Source of the DNA: an uncultured Clostridia bacterium
Lineage (GTDB): Bacteria; Bacillota; Clostridia; Christensenellales; Borkfalkiaceae
Assembly: GCA_944363645.1 (NCBI GenBank)
Contig: CALVUR010000003.1
Location: forward strand, 62,001-126,000
Direction: 5' to 3'
Length of the DNA: 64,000 bases
Below, piece by piece: positions 37,406 through 47,697 of this stretch. The notes beneath the pieces were generated by a model. It did not search any database. It saw only the letters and a program-made list of their open reading frames with translations, and was not told the origin of the DNA. Numbering within the stretch: position 1 is the stretch's first letter; each line of letters starts with the position of its first letter. A program made the translations under genes and the position numbers.

Positions 37406-40400
37406 TTAACAAGCGCAATCAGCGTTGTTTAATGCAATGTAAGGAGCAGTAAGGTTGCCTTCAGCATCAGCAAGAAGTGTCCAAACTTCGGTATCAAAGC
37501 CGAGAGTGTCAACTAAGATAGACTTACCAAATCTGCCTTGGAACATGCTTTCTGAGTAAGCAGTTACACCAAAGTCAGTGTTGTATTCTTCCATGATAGT
37601 AGCACATCTTGTGATTGTTGCGCCACGTGAAGCGAAGTTACCCATGATGCCGGAAATGTTCTTTTGTGCTACTTCAACCTTTAAGTTTGCGTAGTACATT
37701 GTGCTTCTTGAGAAGCAACCGGCAACCCTGAGTGTACCGCCACCCTTGTGGTAACCAACCATACCACCGATTCTTGAACTACCGCCGGTACCTACTAATA
37801 CAGAAGTTGTATAGCAGTTTTCGATATCTAACAAGAACTTAGTTGGTGTGTTTGCGCCCTTAGAGTCGTCGTATTCAGCAACGATACCACCGATACTGTA
37901 ACTTGTAGCGAGTGTATATGTGCTTGTGAAGCAATCTTTTACATAAACGTAAACGTCGTCAGTTGGGTTAGAAGATGGTTGAATGAAACCGATTAAACTA
38001 CTTGCCCTTGTGCCGTTTGCTTTAACGTAGTAAGCAGTTGGTTCTTCTTCAGCAACGATTTGACCTTTTTCGTTTAAGGTTGGGATTGGGTTAACAACGC
38101 TTACACGGCTAACGGTTGTTGCAACAGGTGCTTCGAAGATTTGACCGATGAATGCGCCCGTACGTTGAGAACCGATTACACGAACGTTAGTGATAGCGAT
38201 GTTGTCGAATGAACCGCCGTAAACGGTTGCGATGATACCATTTTTCTGTGCAGAGCCAGCTTCGATAACGATGTTATCAAAGTTAAGATCTCTAATTGTA
38301 CCACCTTCAACTTTGTTGAATAAGCCGCTGCCGTTAACTGTTACGTTAGCGATTGTGTGGCCGTTACCGTCTAAGTAACCGCTGAATTCATTTGAACTCT
38401 TTGCCCAAGTAACGTTTGTGAAGTCAAGGCATCTTGATACGCTGTAGATTGTCTTTGAAACCTTTTCGCCACCGATTGAGTTACCGCCGGCAACCTTCAT
38501 GAATGCTTCTGGGGTATCAACTTCAACCATACCGATTTCGTCGGTGTAAATCTCTGAAGTGATTTGGTCACGCATGTTAGCGAGAGCGTAGTATACATAG
38601 TAACTACCTTCGTTTGCGTTAGCGAATTGGCAACTGATTGTATCGCTTGTGAATGCGTATCTTTCAACGCCTTCCATAGTCTTAATGTTTTCAGGTGTAA
38701 CTTCTAATTCGGTTGAAGAAGAAAGCGCATACAAGTAACCTGTAACGTTTGACAAGTTACCGCTGATTAAGTAACCATCAAGGTTAACAGCGATTTGAGC
38801 GGAAGAAGTAAAGTCTACATTAGCCGCTGTACTTGCAACGTAAATTGTGTAAGAGTATTGAGCCTTTTCACCGCTTGATTTTAAAGTTACGGTATGAGTG
38901 ATGTTCCAAACACCGTCGTTGCTTGGTGTGAATTCCTTAACTTCGATAAAGTTAGCAAGTTTAGAAGGTGCATACATGTAAGTTACTTCGCTGGTGAATT
39001 GTTCGCCTAAAACGAATTGGTTACCGCTGTAGTTTGCACCGTTGATAACCTTAATTTGAGGTTCGGATGCGATTGAGAAGTGGTTTACAATGTAACTATC
39101 GCCGTTGTAAACTTTTTCTCCGTTGGGGTTTGTAACATAGATGTCGCCGATACGTGGTTCGTCCATTTTAACGGTGATAACGAAATCTCTTGTCTTTGTT
39201 TGACCTTGAGCGGTAACATTAGCAGTTAATGTAACTTGCTTGTCTTCGTAAATATCACGATGGATTGTTACGTATTGGAATGTTGTCCTTGAAGGACTTG
39301 CGATTTCTTTATTTTTGTCAGTAACTGTTGCAACTGTTTCGTCGCTTGATGTCCAAGTAAGGGTTACATTTTTCATGTTTGATGGTACCCAGAAGTCTTG
39401 GTAAACTGCTGCTGGGTTGCAAGCAAGTGAAAGTGAATCAACAGCGGCTTCTAAAATAGCATCAACTTCAGAAGTTGCTTCTTGATAGTTGTTGTCTAAA
39501 TCAAAGTGGTCATATTCAGCATATGTTGATAAACTGAAGTTTGCACCGATTTGTTTGCCAGCAAGTGGCTGACTAACAACCTTAAACAAATCGCCAAGAT
39601 TGATAGAGCCGTCAGCGTTACGATATTTAATGTGAACACGGTCAGCCTTAGCAGTATCGTTTAAACCTGTCAATGTGTAGGTTGATGTAGCATAATTGAT
39701 AGGAATCAATGCGAAAACTGATTCGTTTAATGCTGTGCCTTTTTTACCATTGATACCAACTTTTGTATCAGCGTCGAGTGTGCCGTCTACAATGTAAGCG
39801 TCGCTACCATTTCTTAAAACGCTGTCTTGAACGGAAGCACGGTAAGCATCGTTGCCTAAGCCTGTAATTGCGGTTGACTTAACAGATAAAACATTTTTCA
39901 TGTTGTTGTAACTGTAAGTTTGACGAGCAACGTCGATGTTTGCGCCTTCTGTTGAAGAGTTGTCTTTTAAGATGTTACCGGTTGCGTCAACCTTTCTGTT
40001 GTTGTCGTAAGCGGTTACGTTTGTTAATGAAATAACGCCTGGGTTAGAGTTATCTGTAACACCGTGTGCTTTATTGTGGAATGCTAAACAGTTGTGTAAA
40101 ACAACGTCGCCTTCCATAACAGAACCACCAAGTTTGAAGCCGTTGCCGTCGCCGTCACGTGTGTCATAACTTGCAGTGTTAGATTCGTCATAAGCATGAT
40201 CGTATGTTGGGAATTTTGCGTTGCAGTCTGCTTGAGTATTTTCAAGGTAACCGTTTTCAAAAGCGATACAGTTATACATAATAACGCTACCGATGTTACC
40301 GCTGTCTACTTTAGCATATAAGTCCCAGCCGTCGTCAGAGTTACGATAAGCGATACAACTGTCGAATACGTTGCCGTAACCTACTGTAAGTTTAGCGGCA

Positions 40401-41056
40401 AAGCCGTCTGCGTTTTCGCCGTATGTTTGGTTATCGTAGTTGTTGTGTGAAGTACAATTTTTGATTAAGTTGTAACTTGGCCATTGGTCGATGAAGTTTA
40501 AGTCGCCACTTGATCTACCAAGTTGTAATCCAGAGTCACGGTTGTCATAAAATTCGCAATCTTCGATGATGTTGTAACTACCACCGATGTATAAACCGTT
40601 GTCGCCTGCACCGCAAACGTCAATGTCTTTCCAGTGAATGTAATCTGCTTCAATAGAAACACCACGGTTTACTGAATTGAAATCTTGTGCGTAAAATTTA
40701 AATGTTGCTTGTTCTGTATCACTTGCGTTTTCGATAGTGATGTACTTATTGTAAGTACCACTTCTTCTAATAATGATACGTTGACCGATATTATAATCGC
40801 CTGGCAAAACTTTAACTGTATCACCCGGTTGAAGGATGTTTGAGTTAAGTAATGTGTTGACGTTATATGGTCTTTCTTGATTGCCTGCTTCACCTTCTGT
40901 GCCGTAAGTAGCCTCAGGTGAAACATAATAAACTTTTGCTTCTTCAGCGCTTACGTTTATTGTGTTTTTGATTGCCATAACGCCAAATACTGACGTAACA
41001 GCAAGTGCAATCACTACAAATAAGGTTATAATTTTATTTCTTAAACTAATACTCAT
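37406..41056 (-). CDS. Secreted family 9 pectate lyase with Ig-like and GLUG-like modules
   Basis: Extracellular polygalacturonate lyase of 1216 residues. Residues 8-37 form a signal peptide, likely cut after VSA. A right-handed beta-helix (about 40-480) has PL9 calcium ligands D217, D241, D242 and D245 (ENADGF, NSDDGWDLY), whose spacing of 24, 25 and 28 equals that known for Pel9A, and the probable catalytic base K308 in GNGFKLGG. A bacterial Ig-like domain follows (about 550-640, LTWTSSDETVATVTD), further beta domains to about 880, then GLUG-like repeats (YLDGNGHTIANVTVNGSGLF and on). There is no cell-wall anchor motif. AGGGGGT precedes the ATG. It follows the duplicated-module lipoprotein gene by 14 bases and should be co-transcribed with it. 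Confidence 0.93.
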   Translation of the reverse strand: MSISLRNKIITLFVVIALAVTSVFGVMAIKNTINVSAEEAKVYYVSPEATYGTEGEAGNQERPYNVNTLLNSNILQPGDTVKVLPGDYNIGQRIIIRRSGTYNKYITIENASDTEQATFKFYAQDFNSVNRGVSIEADYIHWKDIDVCGAGDNGLYIGGSYNIIEDCEFYDNRDSGLQLGRSSGDLNFIDQWPSYNLIKNCTSHNNYDNQTYGENADGFAAKLTVGYGNVFDSCIAYRNSDDGWDLYAKVDSGNIGSVIMYNCIAFENGYLENTQADCNAKFPTYDHAYDESNTASYDTRDGDGNGFKLGGSVMEGDVVLHNCLAFHNKAHGVTDNSNPGVISLTNVTAYDNNRKVDATGNILKDNSSTEGANIDVARQTYSYNNMKNVLSVKSTAITGLGNDAYRASVQDSVLRNGSDAYIVDGTLDADTKVGINGKKGTALNESVFALIPINYATSTYTLTGLNDTAKADRVHIKYRNADGSINLGDLFKVVSQPLAGKQIGANFSLSTYAEYDHFDLDNNYQEATSEVDAILEAAVDSLSLACNPAAVYQDFWVPSNMKNVTLTWTSSDETVATVTDKNKEIASPSRTTFQYVTIHRDIYEDKQVTLTANVTAQGQTKTRDFVITVKMDEPRIGDIYVTNPNGEKVYNGDSYIVNHFSIASEPQIKVINGANYSGNQFVLGEQFTSEVTYMYAPSKLANFIEVKEFTPSNDGVWNITHTVTLKSSGEKAQYSYTIYVASTAANVDFTSSAQIAVNLDGYLISGNLSNVTGYLYALSSSTELEVTPENIKTMEGVERYAFTSDTISCQFANANEGSYYVYYALANMRDQITSEIYTDEIGMVEVDTPEAFMKVAGGNSIGGEKVSKTIYSVSRCLDFTNVTWAKSSNEFSGYLDGNGHTIANVTVNGSGLFNKVEGGTIRDLNFDNIVIEAGSAQKNGIIATVYGGSFDNIAITNVRVIGSQRTGAFIGQIFEAPVATTVSRVSVVNPIPTLNEKGQIVAEEEPTAYYVKANGTRASSLIGFIQPSSNPTDDVYVYVKDCFTSTYTLATSYSIGGIVAEYDDSKGANTPTKFLLDIENCYTTSVLVGTGGSSRIGGMVGYHKGGGTLRVAGCFSRSTMYYANLKVEVAQKNISGIMGNFASRGATITRCATIMEEYNTDFGVTAYSESMFQGRFGKSILVDTLGFDTEVWTLLADAEGNLTAPYIALNNADCAC

Positions 41057-41070
41057 TTTTTTACCCCCTA

Positions 41071-43440
41071 TTAGTGATTATCTACCATACCGATTGTTTG
41101 GAAACGTGTACCACGTGTAACGGTTGCGTCTTGGAAAGAACAAATTGTGTATGTGCCCGGTTGTGTAATTTCGTAAGACAATGTTACAAATTCAGTACCT
41201 GTTACTGAGTAAACATTTACAAATCCGTCTGCAGTAAGTGCTGTAGCACCTGCGCCTACTGTTGTTGGGGCAATAATTTCAGTGCCAAACTTAACGCCAG
41301 CGTAAGATACATTTGAACCACCTGTTGATGCGAAAGAAATTGTTAATGTACCTGTGCCTTGGAATGTAACTGACAATGTGCCTTTTTTAAGTTCGAAACA
41401 ACCACTACTGCTTGTTCTGTATTGATCACTTGAACCTAAAGAACCACCTAATGTTAAGAAAGCATTGTTGCCTGTGAAGTATTCTGCTTTAAGTGCTGTC
41501 TTATCAGCAGCGGTTGCTACGCCTGTTTGTGTAGCAATTTCAGCAGCGAGTTCAGTAATGCTGAAGTTGAATGTATCTGTAACGGCTTCAGATGCGCCGC
41601 CGCCAACGGTAGTTGTCATTGATACATAGTACATATTGATTGAAGCGTTTGGTACTAAGTAATATGTGCCAGCGACATCAAATGTAAATTCGTATTTTGT
41701 TACTGCATTAGGAATACCTTCTGTTGTTGCAAGAACATTACCAGCAGCATCTGTGAATGAAGCGGTTCTTGTTAAATCGCTTGCAGAGCCAGTGATTAAG
41801 TATACAACAACTTTACCAGGACCTTCTGCAACGAATTGAATTACTCTACCTTCGCTTATACTACCTTTACCACCGAATTTGAGACGTTGTGTAAATGTTA
41901 AGCCGTCTGCTGACTTGCTGTTAGCGTCGATAGTAATCTTTTTGCTTGAAGTTGCTATAGCAGTAATGCCTTCAGCAAGTTCAAAGTTTTCTTCATAGGT
42001 TGCTGCTGCAACATCGCTGATGTTTGCTGTTGCAACTTTTTCTACTACAGGAATTGAGTATGTCATTGATACATAGTACATATTGATTGAAGCGTTTGGT
42101 ACTAAGTAATATGTGCCGGCGGCATCAAATGTAAATTCGTATTTTGTTACTGCATTAGGAATACCTTCTGTTGTTGCAAGAACATTACCAGCAGCATCTG
42201 TGAATGAAGCGGTTCTTGTTAAATCGCTTGCAGAGCCAGTGATTAAGTATACAACAACTTTACCAGGACCTTCTGCAACGAATTGAATTACTCTACCTTC
42301 GCTTATACTACCTTTACCACCGAATTTGAGACGTTGTGTAAATGTTAAGCCGTCTGCTGACTTGCTGTTAGCGTCGATAGTAATCTTTTTGCTTGAAGTT
42401 GCTATAGCAGTAATGCCTTCAGCAAGTTCAAAGTTTTCTTCATAGGTTGCTGCTGCAATATCGCTGATGTTTGCAGAAACTGAAACTTCTGAACCGGTAA
42501 CAGGTTTAGCGGTTACGGTGTAGGTTACTGTAGCAGGTTCGGTTGTTTGAACTTCGCCTTTTGCGTTTGCCTTTTCGTAAACTGCGGTTACAGTGAATTC
42601 ACCAGCGTTGCTTGTATCAACTTCTGTTTGGAATTCTACTTCTTCGCTTGAAACGATTTGAGTTTTACCGCTTGCATAAGTTACTTGGAACTGCCATGTT
42701 TCACTGATTGTGTCTTTGCCTTCTTCCTGAGTTGTCAAAGTACCTTCAGCGTCTTGTAACCAAGTAAGAGCAACAACGTTATCGATAACGTAAATTGTTG
42801 TGAATGCTTTTACGGTGAAACCTTCAACATATTGTGATGGTTTTTCAACCCAAATTTGATATGCGCCTTCCTTTGTTAAGGTAGCAACGCCGTTTGTTAA
42901 GGGGATTTCTTCCTTACCTAAGTAAAGACTTGTTGTGTAGCCGTCTAAGACTTCTTGTGTTAAGTTACCTTCAACATCGGTTACCTTAACATCAATTTGT
43001 GTGCAGTCCAAAGTAACTGGTTCAGCCAATGAATAGGTATCTTGAACGCCTTCTTTAAGTGCCACACCAATACCATCGAATTCAATAACGATTACGTCAT
43101 ATGATGCTTCAAGAACGCTTTCATTATATTCGTATGAAATAACGATTGTATATACACCGGCTTTTTCGCTGTTAAATGCTGAAGCGTCAAGCGTATATTC
43201 TGAAGCAGTCAACTCTATAGTAGCTGGAGCGGGTCTATTAAGCCTTTTAATTGAAGCCTTTACAACAAGACCTTCTGATGTGAAGTCTTCACCGACGAAA
43301 TATTCGACTTTAACATTTGTTGTGTCGATTTCGAGCGATTGCAACTTTTCAACATTGGTTTTCACATTACATGCGCTAAAAGACATGGCTAATATTGCAA
43401 GTAATGCCAAAACCGCTGTTAGTACTGTCTTCTTTCTCAT
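41071..43440 (-). CDS. Surface lipoprotein with Ig-like modules and a recent internal tandem duplication
   Basis: A 789-residue exported protein with lipobox SFSAC (C24). The N-terminal region has two or three bacterial Ig-like modules (about 30-310, for example VEYFVGEDFTSEGLVVKASI). Two nearly identical modules of about 138 residues follow (323-460 and 472-609, each with FELAEGITAIATSSKKITID and YYLVPNASINMYYVSM), then a related third domain (about 620-789). The twin modules resemble the beta-sandwich found beside pectate lyases, with a TFTQRLKFGG...G..I.F...G.G.V.VY pattern. It is 14 bases upstream of the PL9 lyase in the same transcript, so a substrate-binding role on the cell surface is likely, though unproven. 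Confidence 0.8.
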   Translation of the reverse strand: MRKKTVLTAVLALLAILAMSFSACNVKTNVEKLQSLEIDTTNVKVEYFVGEDFTSEGLVVKASIKRLNRPAPATIELTASEYTLDASAFNSEKAGVYTIVISYEYNESVLEASYDVIVIEFDGIGVALKEGVQDTYSLAEPVTLDCTQIDVKVTDVEGNLTQEVLDGYTTSLYLGKEEIPLTNGVATLTKEGAYQIWVEKPSQYVEGFTVKAFTTIYVIDNVVALTWLQDAEGTLTTQEEGKDTISETWQFQVTYASGKTQIVSSEEVEFQTEVDTSNAGEFTVTAVYEKANAKGEVQTTEPATVTYTVTAKPVTGSEVSVSANISDIAAATYEENFELAEGITAIATSSKKITIDANSKSADGLTFTQRLKFGGKGSISEGRVIQFVAEGPGKVVVYLITGSASDLTRTASFTDAAGNVLATTEGIPNAVTKYEFTFDAAGTYYLVPNASINMYYVSMTYSIPVVEKVATANISDVAAATYEENFELAEGITAIATSSKKITIDANSKSADGLTFTQRLKFGGKGSISEGRVIQFVAEGPGKVVVYLITGSASDLTRTASFTDAAGNVLATTEGIPNAVTKYEFTFDVAGTYYLVPNASINMYYVSMTTTVGGGASEAVTDTFNFSITELAAEIATQTGVATAADKTALKAEYFTGNNAFLTLGGSLGSSDQYRTSSSGCFELKKGTLSVTFQGTGTLTISFASTGGSNVSYAGVKFGTEIIAPTTVGAGATALTADGFVNVYSVTGTEFVTLSYEITQPGTYTICSFQDATVTRGTRFQTIGMVDNH
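41614..42027 (-). repeat. Tandem duplication, copy A (414 bp)
   Basis: In-frame direct repeat with period 447 bp (149 codons). By eye it differs from copy B at three positions only: CAGCGAC versus CGGCGGC, and ACATCG versus ATATCG. Confidence 0.95.
42061..42474 (-). repeat. Tandem duplication, copy B (414 bp)
   Basis: Partner of the copy at 41614-42027. The linker of about 33 bases between the copies encodes a valine-rich spacer (YSIPVVEKVA). Confidence 0.95.
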
Positions 43441-43788: not shown

Positions 43789-44895
43789 TTACGCCCCCAT
43801 AAATAAACTTAAAATGATACCGCCAGCAACAACCGAAGCGATTTGACCTGAAACGTTTACGCCGATTGAATGCATAAGCAAGAAGTTTTGATTGTCTTCT
43901 TTAAGCGCCATTTTATGTACTACCCTACCCGACATTGGGAATGCTGAAATACCAGCCGCACCAATCATAGGGTTAATCTTATTTTTAGTAAATAGGTTGA
44001 TAAATTTAGCAAGCAATACACCGCCGGCTGTATCGAAAATAAATGCGATTAAGCCAAGACCTAAAATTAAAAGTGTATCGGGTGTTAAAAATTTATCTGC
44101 AACCATGTTAAAGGATACAGACAAGCCTAAAACGATTGTAATAAGGTTTGCAAGCACCTTTTGTGCTGTTTCGGATAAAGAGTCTAACACGCCACATTCC
44201 CTTATTAAGTTACCGAACATTAAAAAGCCGATAAGTGAAGTTGCTTGAGGAATGATTGCTGAAACGACTGCTGTAATAATGATCGGGAAAGCGATTCTTG
44301 TTGCCTTTGAAACAGATTTTTGTTCGTAAGGCATCCTGATAAGTCTTTCCTTTTTTGTTGTCAAAAGTTTGATAATTGGTGGTTGAATTAGCGGTACTAA
44401 CGCCATGTATGAGTAGGCTGCGACCGTAATTGCGCCAACATATTTTGAGCCTAATTTGATTGCGGCAGCGATTGAAGTTGGACCATCTGCTGCGCCGATA
44501 ATTGCGATTGCAGCGGCATCTTTTGGGTCGAAAAACATTGAAGCCATACAAAGTGTGAAAAAGATACCAAATTGTGCGGCTGCGCCAAACAACATAAGTT
44601 TGGGGTTTGTCAAAAGCGGACCGAAGTCAATCATTGCGCCGATACCGATAAAAAGTAGTAATGGAAAAAGTTCGTTTGCGATACCGGCGTTATAAAGCGT
44701 TTCGATTGGACCGACCAGCGCATCTGAGCCGGGAATGTTTACTAATATTGCGCCAAAGCCCATAGGAAGTAAAAGTGTGGGCTCCATCTCTTTTTTAATG
44801 GCGAGAAATATTAGTATCAAACCGATTAAAATCATTACGCCTTGTTGCCAACTAAAGTTTAGAAGATTCTCGTAAAGAATTTTAAAAAAGTCCAT
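43789..44895 (-). CDS. oadB: Sodium-pumping decarboxylase beta subunit (OadB/MmdB/GcdB family)
   Basis: A 368-residue polytopic membrane subunit that couples decarboxylation of carboxybiotin to sodium export. Conserved family segments are present: LLLFIGIGAMIDFGPLL, IIGAADGPTSI (sodium/proton site aspartate), PPIIKLLTTKKER and NPMIGAAGISAFPMSGRVVH. It is in the usual 360-430 range. The carboxyltransferase and biotin-carrier subunits are not in this window, so the decarboxylated substrate (oxaloacetate, methylmalonyl-CoA or glutaconyl-CoA) cannot be named. AGAGGAT precedes the ATG. Confidence 0.93.
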   Translation of the reverse strand: MDFFKILYENLLNFSWQQGVMILIGLILIFLAIKKEMEPTLLLPMGFGAILVNIPGSDALVGPIETLYNAGIANELFPLLLFIGIGAMIDFGPLLTNPKLMLFGAAAQFGIFFTLCMASMFFDPKDAAAIAIIGAADGPTSIAAAIKLGSKYVGAITVAAYSYMALVPLIQPPIIKLLTTKKERLIRMPYEQKSVSKATRIAFPIIITAVVSAIIPQATSLIGFLMFGNLIRECGVLDSLSETAQKVLANLITIVLGLSVSFNMVADKFLTPDTLLILGLGLIAFIFDTAGGVLLAKFINLFTKNKINPMIGAAGISAFPMSGRVVHKMALKEDNQNFLLMHSIGVNVSGQIASVVAGGIILSLFMGA

Positions 44896-45025: not shown

Positions 45026-46150
45026 TTATTTTTGCCAATTTTTAATTTCGGCATAGCACATAACAAGTGGTGCAACGCCTTTTGCATCGTTTTCAACAAC
45101 CGGTTCTGAGATGTAATACTCATAAGTACCATCACGCCTTTTGTTGTCTTCTGGACCTAAACCAGCGACCAAACAAATACCGCCAAGTTTAATTTGACCG
45201 TCGTCATAAACCTTTAAGTATTTTGAAACGACGCCTTCAAAAATCTTTTTACCCATTTCGTGGTATTTTACATCAAGTACGCCCAGCCTTGAGCCCTTCA
45301 TCATTGCGTAAGATACCATCAAACTACCGCTTGTTTCGGGGTAATTGCCAGCCATTTTGGGCTTGTCCACTACCTGATAAAGCATATTTGTTTTGTGGTC
45401 AATATATGGTACGATACCAGCGATTGCTTCCCTAAAAATTTTGGCAAGTTTAGTAACGACTTCTTTACTATGGCAATATTCCATAAGGTCAGCAAGCGCA
45501 ACCAAATACCAACCGATTGAGCGAAGCCAAAAACTTTTTGAAAGACCTTTTTCGTCCGCCCAAAACGCCTTTTTAGAGCAGTCAATGCCGTGGTAATATA
45601 ACTTTTTCTTTTTGTCGTACATTAAAGAATGTACATTTTCAATCTGCTTTAACATGTCTGAATAATCACAGCCACCAAACGCAGTTTTGTACCTACAATA
45701 AAATGGTTGAGCCATATAAATGCCGTCAAGCCAAATTTGGTTGGGGTAAATTTTCTTGTGCCAGAAGTTGCCCGTGTGGGTACGTGGTTGATTTGCGAGT
45801 TGGTCGTAAATGTTAAAGATTGCTTTTTTATACTTTTCTTCACCCGTTGCGCCGTATAAATCGAATAGCACCCTGCCTTCGTTTACGTCGTCAAGGTTGA
45901 ATTTTTCCTTATTGTAAGTCCTAATTGTGCCGTTTTGTTCTACATAATAATCAATGTAGTTTTTAACAAAGTTGAAGTAGCGTTTTTCACCCGTGATTAT
46001 ATATAACTGGTAAAGTGCTGACATCATACAGCCGTCAATATAGTTCCAAACGGGGCTTTTACCCACCCTTATCGACTCGATATTCCAAAGCGGACAAGAT
46101 GGCGTGGATTCATCTAACAATTTATCAATGTAAGGTTGAATTCCGTACAT
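45026..46150 (-). CDS. GH105 unsaturated galacturonyl / rhamnogalacturonyl hydrolase
   Basis: Removes the unsaturated uronic acid left at the non-reducing end by pectate or rhamnogalacturonan lyases. A 374-residue alpha/alpha-barrel without signal peptide, so it works in the cytoplasm on imported oligomers. WNYIDGCMM (about 35-43) and WLDGIYMAQPFY (140-151) are family hallmarks; D142 matches the catalytic aspartate of YteR. SGSLMVSYAM and the YEYYISEPVVENDAKGVAPL segment complete it. AGGGGGT precedes the ATG, 2 bases after the GH28 stop. It is the last gene of the pectin-uptake operon. Confidence 0.95.
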   Translation of the reverse strand: MYGIQPYIDKLLDESTPSCPLWNIESIRVGKSPVWNYIDGCMMSALYQLYIITGEKRYFNFVKNYIDYYVEQNGTIRTYNKEKFNLDDVNEGRVLFDLYGATGEEKYKKAIFNIYDQLANQPRTHTGNFWHKKIYPNQIWLDGIYMAQPFYCRYKTAFGGCDYSDMLKQIENVHSLMYDKKKKLYYHGIDCSKKAFWADEKGLSKSFWLRSIGWYLVALADLMEYCHSKEVVTKLAKIFREAIAGIVPYIDHKTNMLYQVVDKPKMAGNYPETSGSLMVSYAMMKGSRLGVLDVKYHEMGKKIFEGVVSKYLKVYDDGQIKLGGICLVAGLGPEDNKRRDGTYEYYISEPVVENDAKGVAPLVMCYAEIKNWQK

Positions 46151-46152
46151 AA

Positions 46153-47697
46153 TTACCCCCTATTGATTGTGCCGATATTTTCAGCAACAATTTGTTCACC
46201 AACGACGCCCTTAAAAGAGACGTTTTTGATGTTTAAAGTTTCTACGTTGTTAAAGTAAAGCCCTGCGCAAGAACATTTTTTAACGGCAGTTGCCATAGAC
46301 GGAACACCGCTTTGTGCATCCTTTGCAAAGGTGAACTTAACATTTTCAACAGTGATTTCTTGGATAGGTCTTTCGGGAAGTCCGTCGCAGTAAGATGCGG
46401 CAACATGGCAGTTTTCGCAAACCATGTTTCTAAAAGCGAACTTGCCTAAGTATGGTGTGCCGTCGTCAACGGGGAGTTTTTCCCTTGACCAAACGTATTC
46501 GCTGTACCTATCAGGGTCGCAACAGTAATAAAACATATTGATTACAATGGGCGTTAAAACGTTGTTCATTGTAATATTTTCAAACAAAACGCCGTCAATA
46601 ACCGCATACTTACCCCTACCACGGCGAGTTTTTATCCTTAACCCCCTGTCGGTAGAAGAGAATAAGCATTTATTAACTGTAAGGTTTGTAACGCCAGCGG
46701 ACATTTCACTACCCAGAGTGATTGCGCCGTGTCCGTTTTCCATATAGCAGTTGCGGATGACGTGTAAATTTGCAGGTTTTTTATATTTTTTAGCGATGTA
46801 ACTTTTGCCCGATTTGATTGCGATGCAGTCATCACCAACGCTGAAATGACATCCGATAATGTTGACTTTGTTGCATGACTCAGGATCTAACCCGTCGGTG
46901 TTGGGGCTAACCTTTGGTGCGTTTACAGAGATGTTGTAAAAGTTTACGTCTTCGCTAAAATATGGGTGGAACTGCCACGAAGCAGCGTTTTGACCGGTTA
47001 CGCCGTGGAAAGTTACGTTTTTGCAGTTGTTTAAAAAGCAAAGACGAGGTCTGCCGGTTTCTCTTGCGAGAACGTTTTGCCACCATGTTGCGTTTTGAGC
47101 GTTGCCATCGATTGTGCCTTCGCCAACGATAGTAACATTTTTAATGTAAGCACCAAAAATAAGTGCTTGGTGCATTTTTTTAGGAACGCCTTCCCATGAA
47201 CCGCATTGAAGATATCTTTTTGAATATTGATCTGGGATTTCGCCCGGGATTGTTGGGTAACGGCTTTCGTCGGTAGTACCCAAAATAACGCTGTCCTTAG
47301 TGAGTTCTAAGGTCATATCACTTTTAAGTGTGAGTGGGGCGGTTAAATAAACGCCCTTTTCAAGCCTTAACCTACCGCCGGCGGGCATGCAGTTGATTGC
47401 CGTTTGAAGAGCGATAGTGTCATCGGTTTTGCCATCACCTTTTGCGCCAAAGTCGGAAGCCAAAACGCAAACGGTTTCTTTTTTGGTTTTAAATTTTAAG
47501 GTGAAGTTTGTGCCTAATATGCCTAATACGTATTGGGTGTCTGGCGTTAAGTCAAACAAGGAAAATACGTTTGTATTCTTTTCAAATTGAACTTCGCCGT
47601 TTAATGTAACGGTGTAAGTTTTATCACAGTAATAACTTAAATTGTTTTCCCACTCAAAACAAGCGGAACAACTTGAAACATAAAGTAAATTAATCAT
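46153..47697 (-). CDS. GH28 polygalacturonase-family hydrolase, cytoplasmic
   Basis: Hydrolyses alpha-1,4-galacturonosyl (or rhamnogalacturonan) links. 514 residues with no signal peptide: an N-terminal fibronectin-type domain (about 1-72, ending LTPDTQYVLGI) and a GH28 beta-helix. Catalytic aspartates D268 (NTDGLDPES), D289 and D290 (SVGDDC), H323 (GHGAITLGS) and the RIKT motif (near 356) are all present. The intracellular location suggests that it trims imported oligogalacturonides, probably as an exo-enzyme. It sits between a membrane protein gene and the GH105 gene, with 15- and 2-base gaps. Confidence 0.95.
   Translation of the reverse strand: MINLLYVSSCSACFEWENNLSYYCDKTYTVTLNGEVQFEKNTNVFSLFDLTPDTQYVLGILGTNFTLKFKTKKETVCVLASDFGAKGDGKTDDTIALQTAINCMPAGGRLRLEKGVYLTAPLTLKSDMTLELTKDSVILGTTDESRYPTIPGEIPDQYSKRYLQCGSWEGVPKKMHQALIFGAYIKNVTIVGEGTIDGNAQNATWWQNVLARETGRPRLCFLNNCKNVTFHGVTGQNAASWQFHPYFSEDVNFYNISVNAPKVSPNTDGLDPESCNKVNIIGCHFSVGDDCIAIKSGKSYIAKKYKKPANLHVIRNCYMENGHGAITLGSEMSAGVTNLTVNKCLFSSTDRGLRIKTRRGRGKYAVIDGVLFENITMNNVLTPIVINMFYYCCDPDRYSEYVWSREKLPVDDGTPYLGKFAFRNMVCENCHVAASYCDGLPERPIQEITVENVKFTFAKDAQSGVPSMATAVKKCSCAGLYFNNVETLNIKNVSFKGVVGEQIVAENIGTINRG

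What the first reader, a model, noticed from the sequence alone, without database searches (positions are those of the whole stretch)
41614..42474. Very recent in-frame tandem duplication in a surface lipoprotein
Two 414-bp segments with period 447 bp differ at only three bases, so a whole module of 138 residues was doubled recently or is kept the same by recombination. The lipoprotein is co-transcribed with the PL9 pectate lyase, so module number may tune substrate binding, and it can vary by slippage or recombination.
Basis: seen in the sequence. Interest (0 to 1): 0.65.

Follow-up and report, generated by a model that had tools for sequence, protein, structure and literature searches.

The report
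Doubled sugar-binding module beside pectate lyase
A gut bacterium carries, just ahead of its pectate lyase gene, a surface lipoprotein whose predicted carbohydrate-binding domain is present twice almost letter for letter, and the same kind of doubling arose separately in at least seven relatives, which points to a pectin-gripping protein whose binding units are repeatedly doubled and kept alike.

Summary
Copies at 42061-42474 and 41614-42027 (minus strand) differ at 3 of 414 bases, are in frame (period 447), and are separated by a 33-nt linker that matches neither flank. The gene (41071-43440) encodes a lipobox protein with Ig-like (Big_3) domains, two A modules and a diverged B module. The predicted A module (pLDDT 97) matches solved 'carbohydrate binding domain of a putative pectate lyase' structures (8wc1, 8x8h; Z about 23), and B matches the same entries (Z 14). 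In the same family A modules are fused to PL9, PL1, PL10 and CE8 pectinases. The lipoprotein sits directly upstream of PL9 across many related genomes (an ORF abuts PL9 in 73 of 80 named PL9 loci), and none of 116 PL9 ORFs carries such a module. Eight of 82 distinct lipoproteins carry long near-identical module repeats, against 0 of about 362 other ORFs. Copies are lineage-specific, linkers unlike. Differences are clustered in two cases, pointing to recombinational homogenisation rather than slippage. Best reading: a pectin-binding surface receptor working in trans with PL9, with a recurrently doubled and homogenised module. Binding and copy-number variation in populations remain untested. New variant of a known kind.

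The parts
41071..43440 (-). Lipoprotein gene, 789 aa: lipobox (FSAC), Big_3 / Ig-like scaffold, modules A1, A2, B
   Evidence: ORF; PF07523 Big_3 8.6e-11; scaffold HMM conserved in 79 of 82 distinct relatives
42481..43440 (-). N-terminal scaffold (signal peptide, lipobox, Big_3 domains), residues 1-320
   Evidence: 50% identical to same-genus orthologue; found in 78 of 301 family genomes at E<=1e-3
42061..42474 (-). Module A copy 1 (138 aa), CBM-like beta sandwich
   Evidence: AlphaFold2 pLDDT 96.8; 8wc1 Z 23.2, 8x8h Z 22.7
42028..42060 (-). 33-nt inter-module linker (YSIPVVEKVAT), unlike both flanks
41614..42027 (-). Module A copy 2 (138 aa), 411/414 identical to copy 1
41074..41583 (-). Module B (170 aa), diverged CBM-like module; triplicated in the same-genus orthologue
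   Evidence: 48-57% aa to the three G006 copies; model pLDDT 91; 8x8h Z 14.0
37406..41056 (-). PL9-type pectate lyase gene, 14 nt downstream of the lipoprotein stop
   Evidence: 1ru4 pectate lyase 5.6e-24 with NADGF/SDDGWDL/GNGFKLGG motifs kept; PelX 2.9e-30; pair conserved
45026..46150 (-). GH105/GH88-type unsaturated glucuronyl hydrolase, same pectin locus
   Evidence: PF07470 9.8e-82; syntenic in G006 and two others
46153..47697 (-). GH28 polygalacturonase, same pectin locus
   Evidence: PF00295 2.6e-42; syntenic

Best explanation
The gene encodes a membrane-anchored surface receptor. Ig-like domains hold carbohydrate-binding modules off the cell and grip pectin (homogalacturonan-type chains) for the module-less PL9 lyase made from the next gene: a CBM acting in trans. 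The A module was doubled in this lineage, and the two copies are kept nearly identical by recombination (gene conversion) confined to the homologous module, while the non-homologous linkers drift. The same process doubled other CBM-like modules independently in relatives. Shown: repeat, linker mismatch, fold match, gene pairing, recurrence. Inferred: pectin binding, trans action, gene conversion as the agent in this particular gene, avidity as the advantage.
For: Fold: 8wc1/8x8h Z 23.2/22.7, rmsd 1.5/1.3, far above the next row at 12.1; sequence 6.5e-22 and 3e-20. B to the same entries, Z 14.0/13.6. Cis fusion of A-type modules to PL9, PL1, PL10 and CE8 enzymes in the same family. Basic residues R50, R63, R89 conserved in 10-14 of 15 modules, fitting an acidic ligand. 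An ORF directly upstream of PL9 in 73 of 80 named PL9 loci, most with the scaffold; five of the seven exceptions have PL9 at a contig edge. No A/B module in 116 PL9 ORFs. Recurrence: 8/82 lipoproteins against 0/362 other ORFs, Fisher 1e-6; copies >=94% identical within a gene, <=67% to any other gene. Unlike linkers in all eight. Clustered differences: L159 356-nt clean run p=0.0014; G115 copies 1/3 320-nt run p=0.0018. Best module pairs are >=92% identical or mostly <=35%, little between. Pooled dN/dS about 0.19.
Against: No binding data; the ligand of 8wc1/8x8h could not be read (no paper held). In this gene only three differences exist, so conversion cannot be tested directly. Conversion between strongly diverged modules is inefficient (own knowledge), so the origin of the linker is unexplained. 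The clustering tests are two of several and uncorrected. The background ORFs mostly lack paired homologous domains, so the comparison favours the lipoprotein.
Confidence: 0.6

Rival explanations
1. A single recent duplication event of the A module, with the 33-nt linker inserted at the junction, and no homogenisation since.
For: Only three differences, about 1 synonymous change per 97 sites; no third copy elsewhere in the genome; no orthologue with A modules in the one same-genus genome that has the gene.
Against: A plain duplication gives unit length equal to period; here and in seven relatives it is shorter and the linker matches neither flank. Eight separate insertion-coupled events would be needed. 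Two relatives show mosaic differences.
Confidence: 0.3
2. The repeated modules are a length-variable stalk (Periscope-type) that projects something else, rather than ligand-binding units.
For: High DNA identity between tandem surface domains and variable number is the hallmark of that class (PMC9704523).
Against: The modules match carbohydrate-binding domains and relatives are fused to pectinases; they lie at the membrane-distal C-terminal end, in several relatives as the last thing in the protein, so there they have nothing to project.
Confidence: 0.12
3. Assembly artefact: one module counted twice.
For: Draft genome in 13 contigs; short reads resolve such repeats poorly (PMC9704523).
Against: The unlike linker flanked by module on both sides requires two copies; three differences; the same pattern in seven other assemblies.
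Confidence: 0.03

Closest known systems
'Carbohydrate binding domain of a putative pectate lyase' (PDB 8wc1 from a PL9, 8x8h from a pectate disaccharide-lyase)
   Same: Same fold over the whole module (Z about 23) and clear sequence homology
   Different: There part of the enzyme itself; here on a separate lipoprotein and doubled
CBM77 pectin-binding module (5fu5, R. flavefaciens cellulosome; family name from own knowledge)
   Same: Related beta-sandwich fold, Z 11.4 to A and 9.5 to B; pectinase context
   Different: No sequence match found; enzyme- or cellulosome-borne; single
Periscope Proteins (PMC8201768, PMC9704523)
   Same: Surface-attached; tandem domains of >50 residues with very high DNA identity; recombination proposed
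   Different: There repeats form the stalk, usually wall-anchored by a C-terminal motif, with population length variation shown; here repeats are putative ligand-binding tips on a lipid anchor, only two or three copies, unlike linkers, variation not shown
Surface glycan-binding lipoproteins of Bacteroidetes Sus-type systems (own knowledge)
   Same: Non-catalytic lipoprotein with Ig-like N-terminus and C-terminal glycan-binding domains encoded next to the enzymes
   Different: Bacillota host, no SusC/D-type genes noted near it, unrelated modules

Membership tests
Carbohydrate-binding module of the 8wc1/8x8h kind (module A) | Sequence homology over the whole domain | tested here: met
   Profile E 6.5e-22 and 3e-20 over positions 3-140 of 141
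Carbohydrate-binding module of the 8wc1/8x8h kind (module A) | Same fold | tested here: met
   Z 23.2/22.7, rmsd 1.5/1.3 A over 139/136 residues
Carbohydrate-binding module of the 8wc1/8x8h kind (module A) | Binds a carbohydrate | not testable with these tools
   Needs a binding assay
Carbohydrate-binding module of the 8wc1/8x8h kind (module B) | Same fold | tested here: met
   Z 14.0, rmsd 2.5 over 128 residues, top hit; sequence match only E 0.074
CBM77 | Sequence homology to CBM77 | tested here: inconclusive
   Fold similarity Z 11.4, no sequence match
Polysaccharide lyase family 9 (downstream gene) | Homology to Pel9A with the Ca-site and Lys motifs kept | tested here: met
   1ru4 E 5.6e-24; ADGF, SDDGxDL and GNGFKLGG aligned; role of these motifs from own knowledge
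Bacterial lipoprotein | Signal peptide with lipobox cysteine | tested here: met
   MRKKTVLTAVLALLAILAMSFSAC; lipobox by strict pattern in 67 of 82 relatives, most of the rest have a signal peptide ending in xAC or are cut by contig ends
Periscope Proteins | Near-identical tandem domains of >50 residues in a surface protein | tested here: met
   138 aa, 99.3% DNA identity
Periscope Proteins | Repeat number varies within a population | not testable with these tools
   One genome per species held
Periscope Proteins | Repeats form a stalk presenting a separate functional domain | tested here: inconclusive
   The repeated domain is itself CBM-like and distal, but module B follows it in this gene

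The most novel reading that the evidence does not exclude
In a whole group of gut Bacillota a dedicated lipoprotein-PL9 pair uses recombination between near-identical CBM modules to raise or lower the number of pectin-binding sites on the cell surface within populations: an avidity dial set by module count.
Probability: 0.22. Interest if true: 0.7.

Novelty: new variant of a known kind. Interest (0 to 1): 0.47.

Why it matters
It turns a one-off repeat into a pattern: a conserved surface receptor-lyase gene pair in uncultured gut Clostridia and Bacilli, with binding modules on a separate lipoprotein, that repeatedly acquires near-identical doubled modules. That gives a natural series (0 to about 5 modules, several module types) for testing whether CBM number sets pectin avidity, and suggests that near-identical surface repeats, known mainly as stalks of pathogen adhesins, also occur in ligand-binding domains of commensals.

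Tried and rejected
Slippage or plain head-to-tail duplication: rejected because repeats are shorter than the period and linkers match neither flank. Assembly breaks at the repeat as hidden evidence of more copies: contig ends within 2 kb of PL9 are not more common on the lipoprotein side (about 13) than on the other (about 23), counted by hand, so dropped. A third copy or donor elsewhere in the genome: none found. Linker from a neighbour: no significant match for the window linker. Single-module genome-contig scan: nothing; the PL9 alignment worked. Pfam and NCBIfam gave no model for module A. Papers describing 8wc1/8x8h or the CBM77 entry were not held. Self-BLAST for module identity failed through hit culling and was redone with local alignment. 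An iterated profile merges A and B; because of possible drift it is not used as proof of homology, the fold match is.

Full report
OBSERVATION. The repeat is real. In the minus-strand gene 41071-43440 (789 aa) two 414-nt stretches, 42061-42474 and 41614-42027, differ at three bases, all transitions, two of them changing an amino acid. The offset is 447 nt (149 codons), but only 414 of them repeat: a 33-nt linker between the copies matches neither the sequence before copy 1 nor that after copy 2, with or without gaps. The linker, bounded by module on both sides, needs two real copies, so an assembly duplicate is unlikely.

THE PROTEIN. It begins with a signal peptide and lipobox (FSAC), then Ig-like Big_3 domains, modules A1 and A2, and a C-terminal module B of 170 aa. 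Pfam and NCBIfam gave no model for A. By sequence A matches two solved domains, 8wc1 (pectate lyase family 9) and 8x8h (pectate disaccharide-lyase). An AlphaFold2 model of A (15 sequences, pLDDT 96.8) superposes on them at Z 23.2 and 22.7, rmsd 1.5 and 1.3; both entries are titled 'A carbohydrate binding domain of a putative pectate lyase', and the next row is at Z 12.1. Module B (pLDDT 91) has the same two entries on top at Z 14.0 and 13.6. Three arginines of A are conserved in 10 to 14 of 15 relatives, as would suit an acidic polymer; that is inference.

SURROUNDINGS. Fourteen nt downstream lies a PL9-type lyase, matched to the solved pectate lyase 1ru4 with its acidic and lysine motifs kept. 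GH105 and GH28 genes lie upstream. In the one same-genus genome with the orthologue (G006) the order deacetylase, AraC, PL9, lipoprotein, GH105, GH28 is kept; its scaffold is 50% identical, but the tail is three diverged B modules (57% to each other) and no A.

THE PAIR IS GENERAL. The scaffold region matched 78 of 301 genomes of the family at E<=1e-3, mostly from one other genus; many of the weak matches are probably only Ig-like domains. Among 80 PL9 loci from named MAGs (uncultured Clostridia including Candidatus Coproplasma, and Anaeroplasmataceae, Acholeplasmatales and other Bacilli), 73 have an ORF directly abutting PL9 upstream, nearly all matching the scaffold profile, mostly with gaps of 0-30 nt; five of the seven exceptions have PL9 at a contig edge. 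PL9 similarity, not repeats, selected these loci. None of 116 PL9 ORFs carries an A or B module (some of the 116 are the same gene from two collections), whereas in the same family A-type modules are fused to PL9, PL1 (Pectate_lyase_4), PL10 (Pec_lyase) and CE8 (Pectinesterase) enzymes. Hence the reading: a pectin-binding module supplied in trans on the cell surface.

RECURRENT DOUBLING. Tails hold from none to about five modules. Eight of 82 distinct lipoproteins carry long near-identical repeats: this one (99.3%), G258 (99.1), G203 (99.0), G115 (three copies, 98.3 for the outer two), L113 (99.6), L116 (99.0), L159 (98.5), G082 (91.9); about 362 other ORFs of 300 aa or more in the same loci have none once an antisense shadow is removed (Fisher 1e-6). 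Most of those other ORFs have no paired domains to homogenise, some are themselves shadow frames, and some loci are related, so the p value is only a guide. The copies in a gene are at least 94% identical in protein but at most 67% to any module in another gene, so these are eight separate events on different module subfamilies. Within multi-module tails the best pair is either >=92% or mostly <=35% identical, with few between.

MECHANISM OF SAMENESS. In all eight the repeat stops short of the period by 5-43 nt and the linker is unlike the flanks (one weak resemblance in G203, p 0.013, and linkers of 5 and 10 nt in G258 and L113 say little). A plain recent tandem duplication would make linker and flank as similar as the modules. 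In L159 and in copies 1 and 3 of G115 the differences are clustered, leaving clean runs of 356 and 320 nt (p 0.0014 and 0.0018 under random placement), and pooled differences are mostly synonymous (dN/dS about 0.19). This suits gene conversion confined to the homologous module. In the window gene itself there are too few differences to test, so a single duplication with an inserted linker stays a serious rival.

COMPARISON. Near-identical surface repeats are known as Periscope Proteins (PMC8201768, PMC9704523), where the repeats are mainly stalks and population length variation is shown; the review names homologous recombination as the likely cause. Here the repeated unit is a putative ligand-binding domain at the far end of a lipid-anchored protein, and population variation is not shown. 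I therefore rate it a new variant of a known kind.

Noticed in passing
window 43789-44895 (-): A Na+-transporting decarboxylase beta subunit (PF03977, 3e-150) sits between the lipoprotein and the GH105 gene here but is absent from that place in the same-genus genome G006.
   Followed up: partly
L061, L063, L068 (G103, G228, G223): Short scaffold-only versions (218-239 aa) of the lipoprotein, without any tail module, still lie directly upstream of PL9.
   Followed up: partly
L065, L070, L072, L078: Several relatives carry extra repeats that look like the Flg_new (List_Bact_rpt) type in front of the Ig-like scaffold.
   Followed up: no
G168:C14:25103-25423: An open frame of 6393 aa with one A-type module.
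   Followed up: no
L138, L139, L142, L146-L148, L150, L151, L163: PL9 loci of Acholeplasmatales, Anaeroplasma and other Bacilli have a scaffold-like lipoprotein upstream whose tail does not match the A or B profiles; other tail types probably exist.
   Followed up: no
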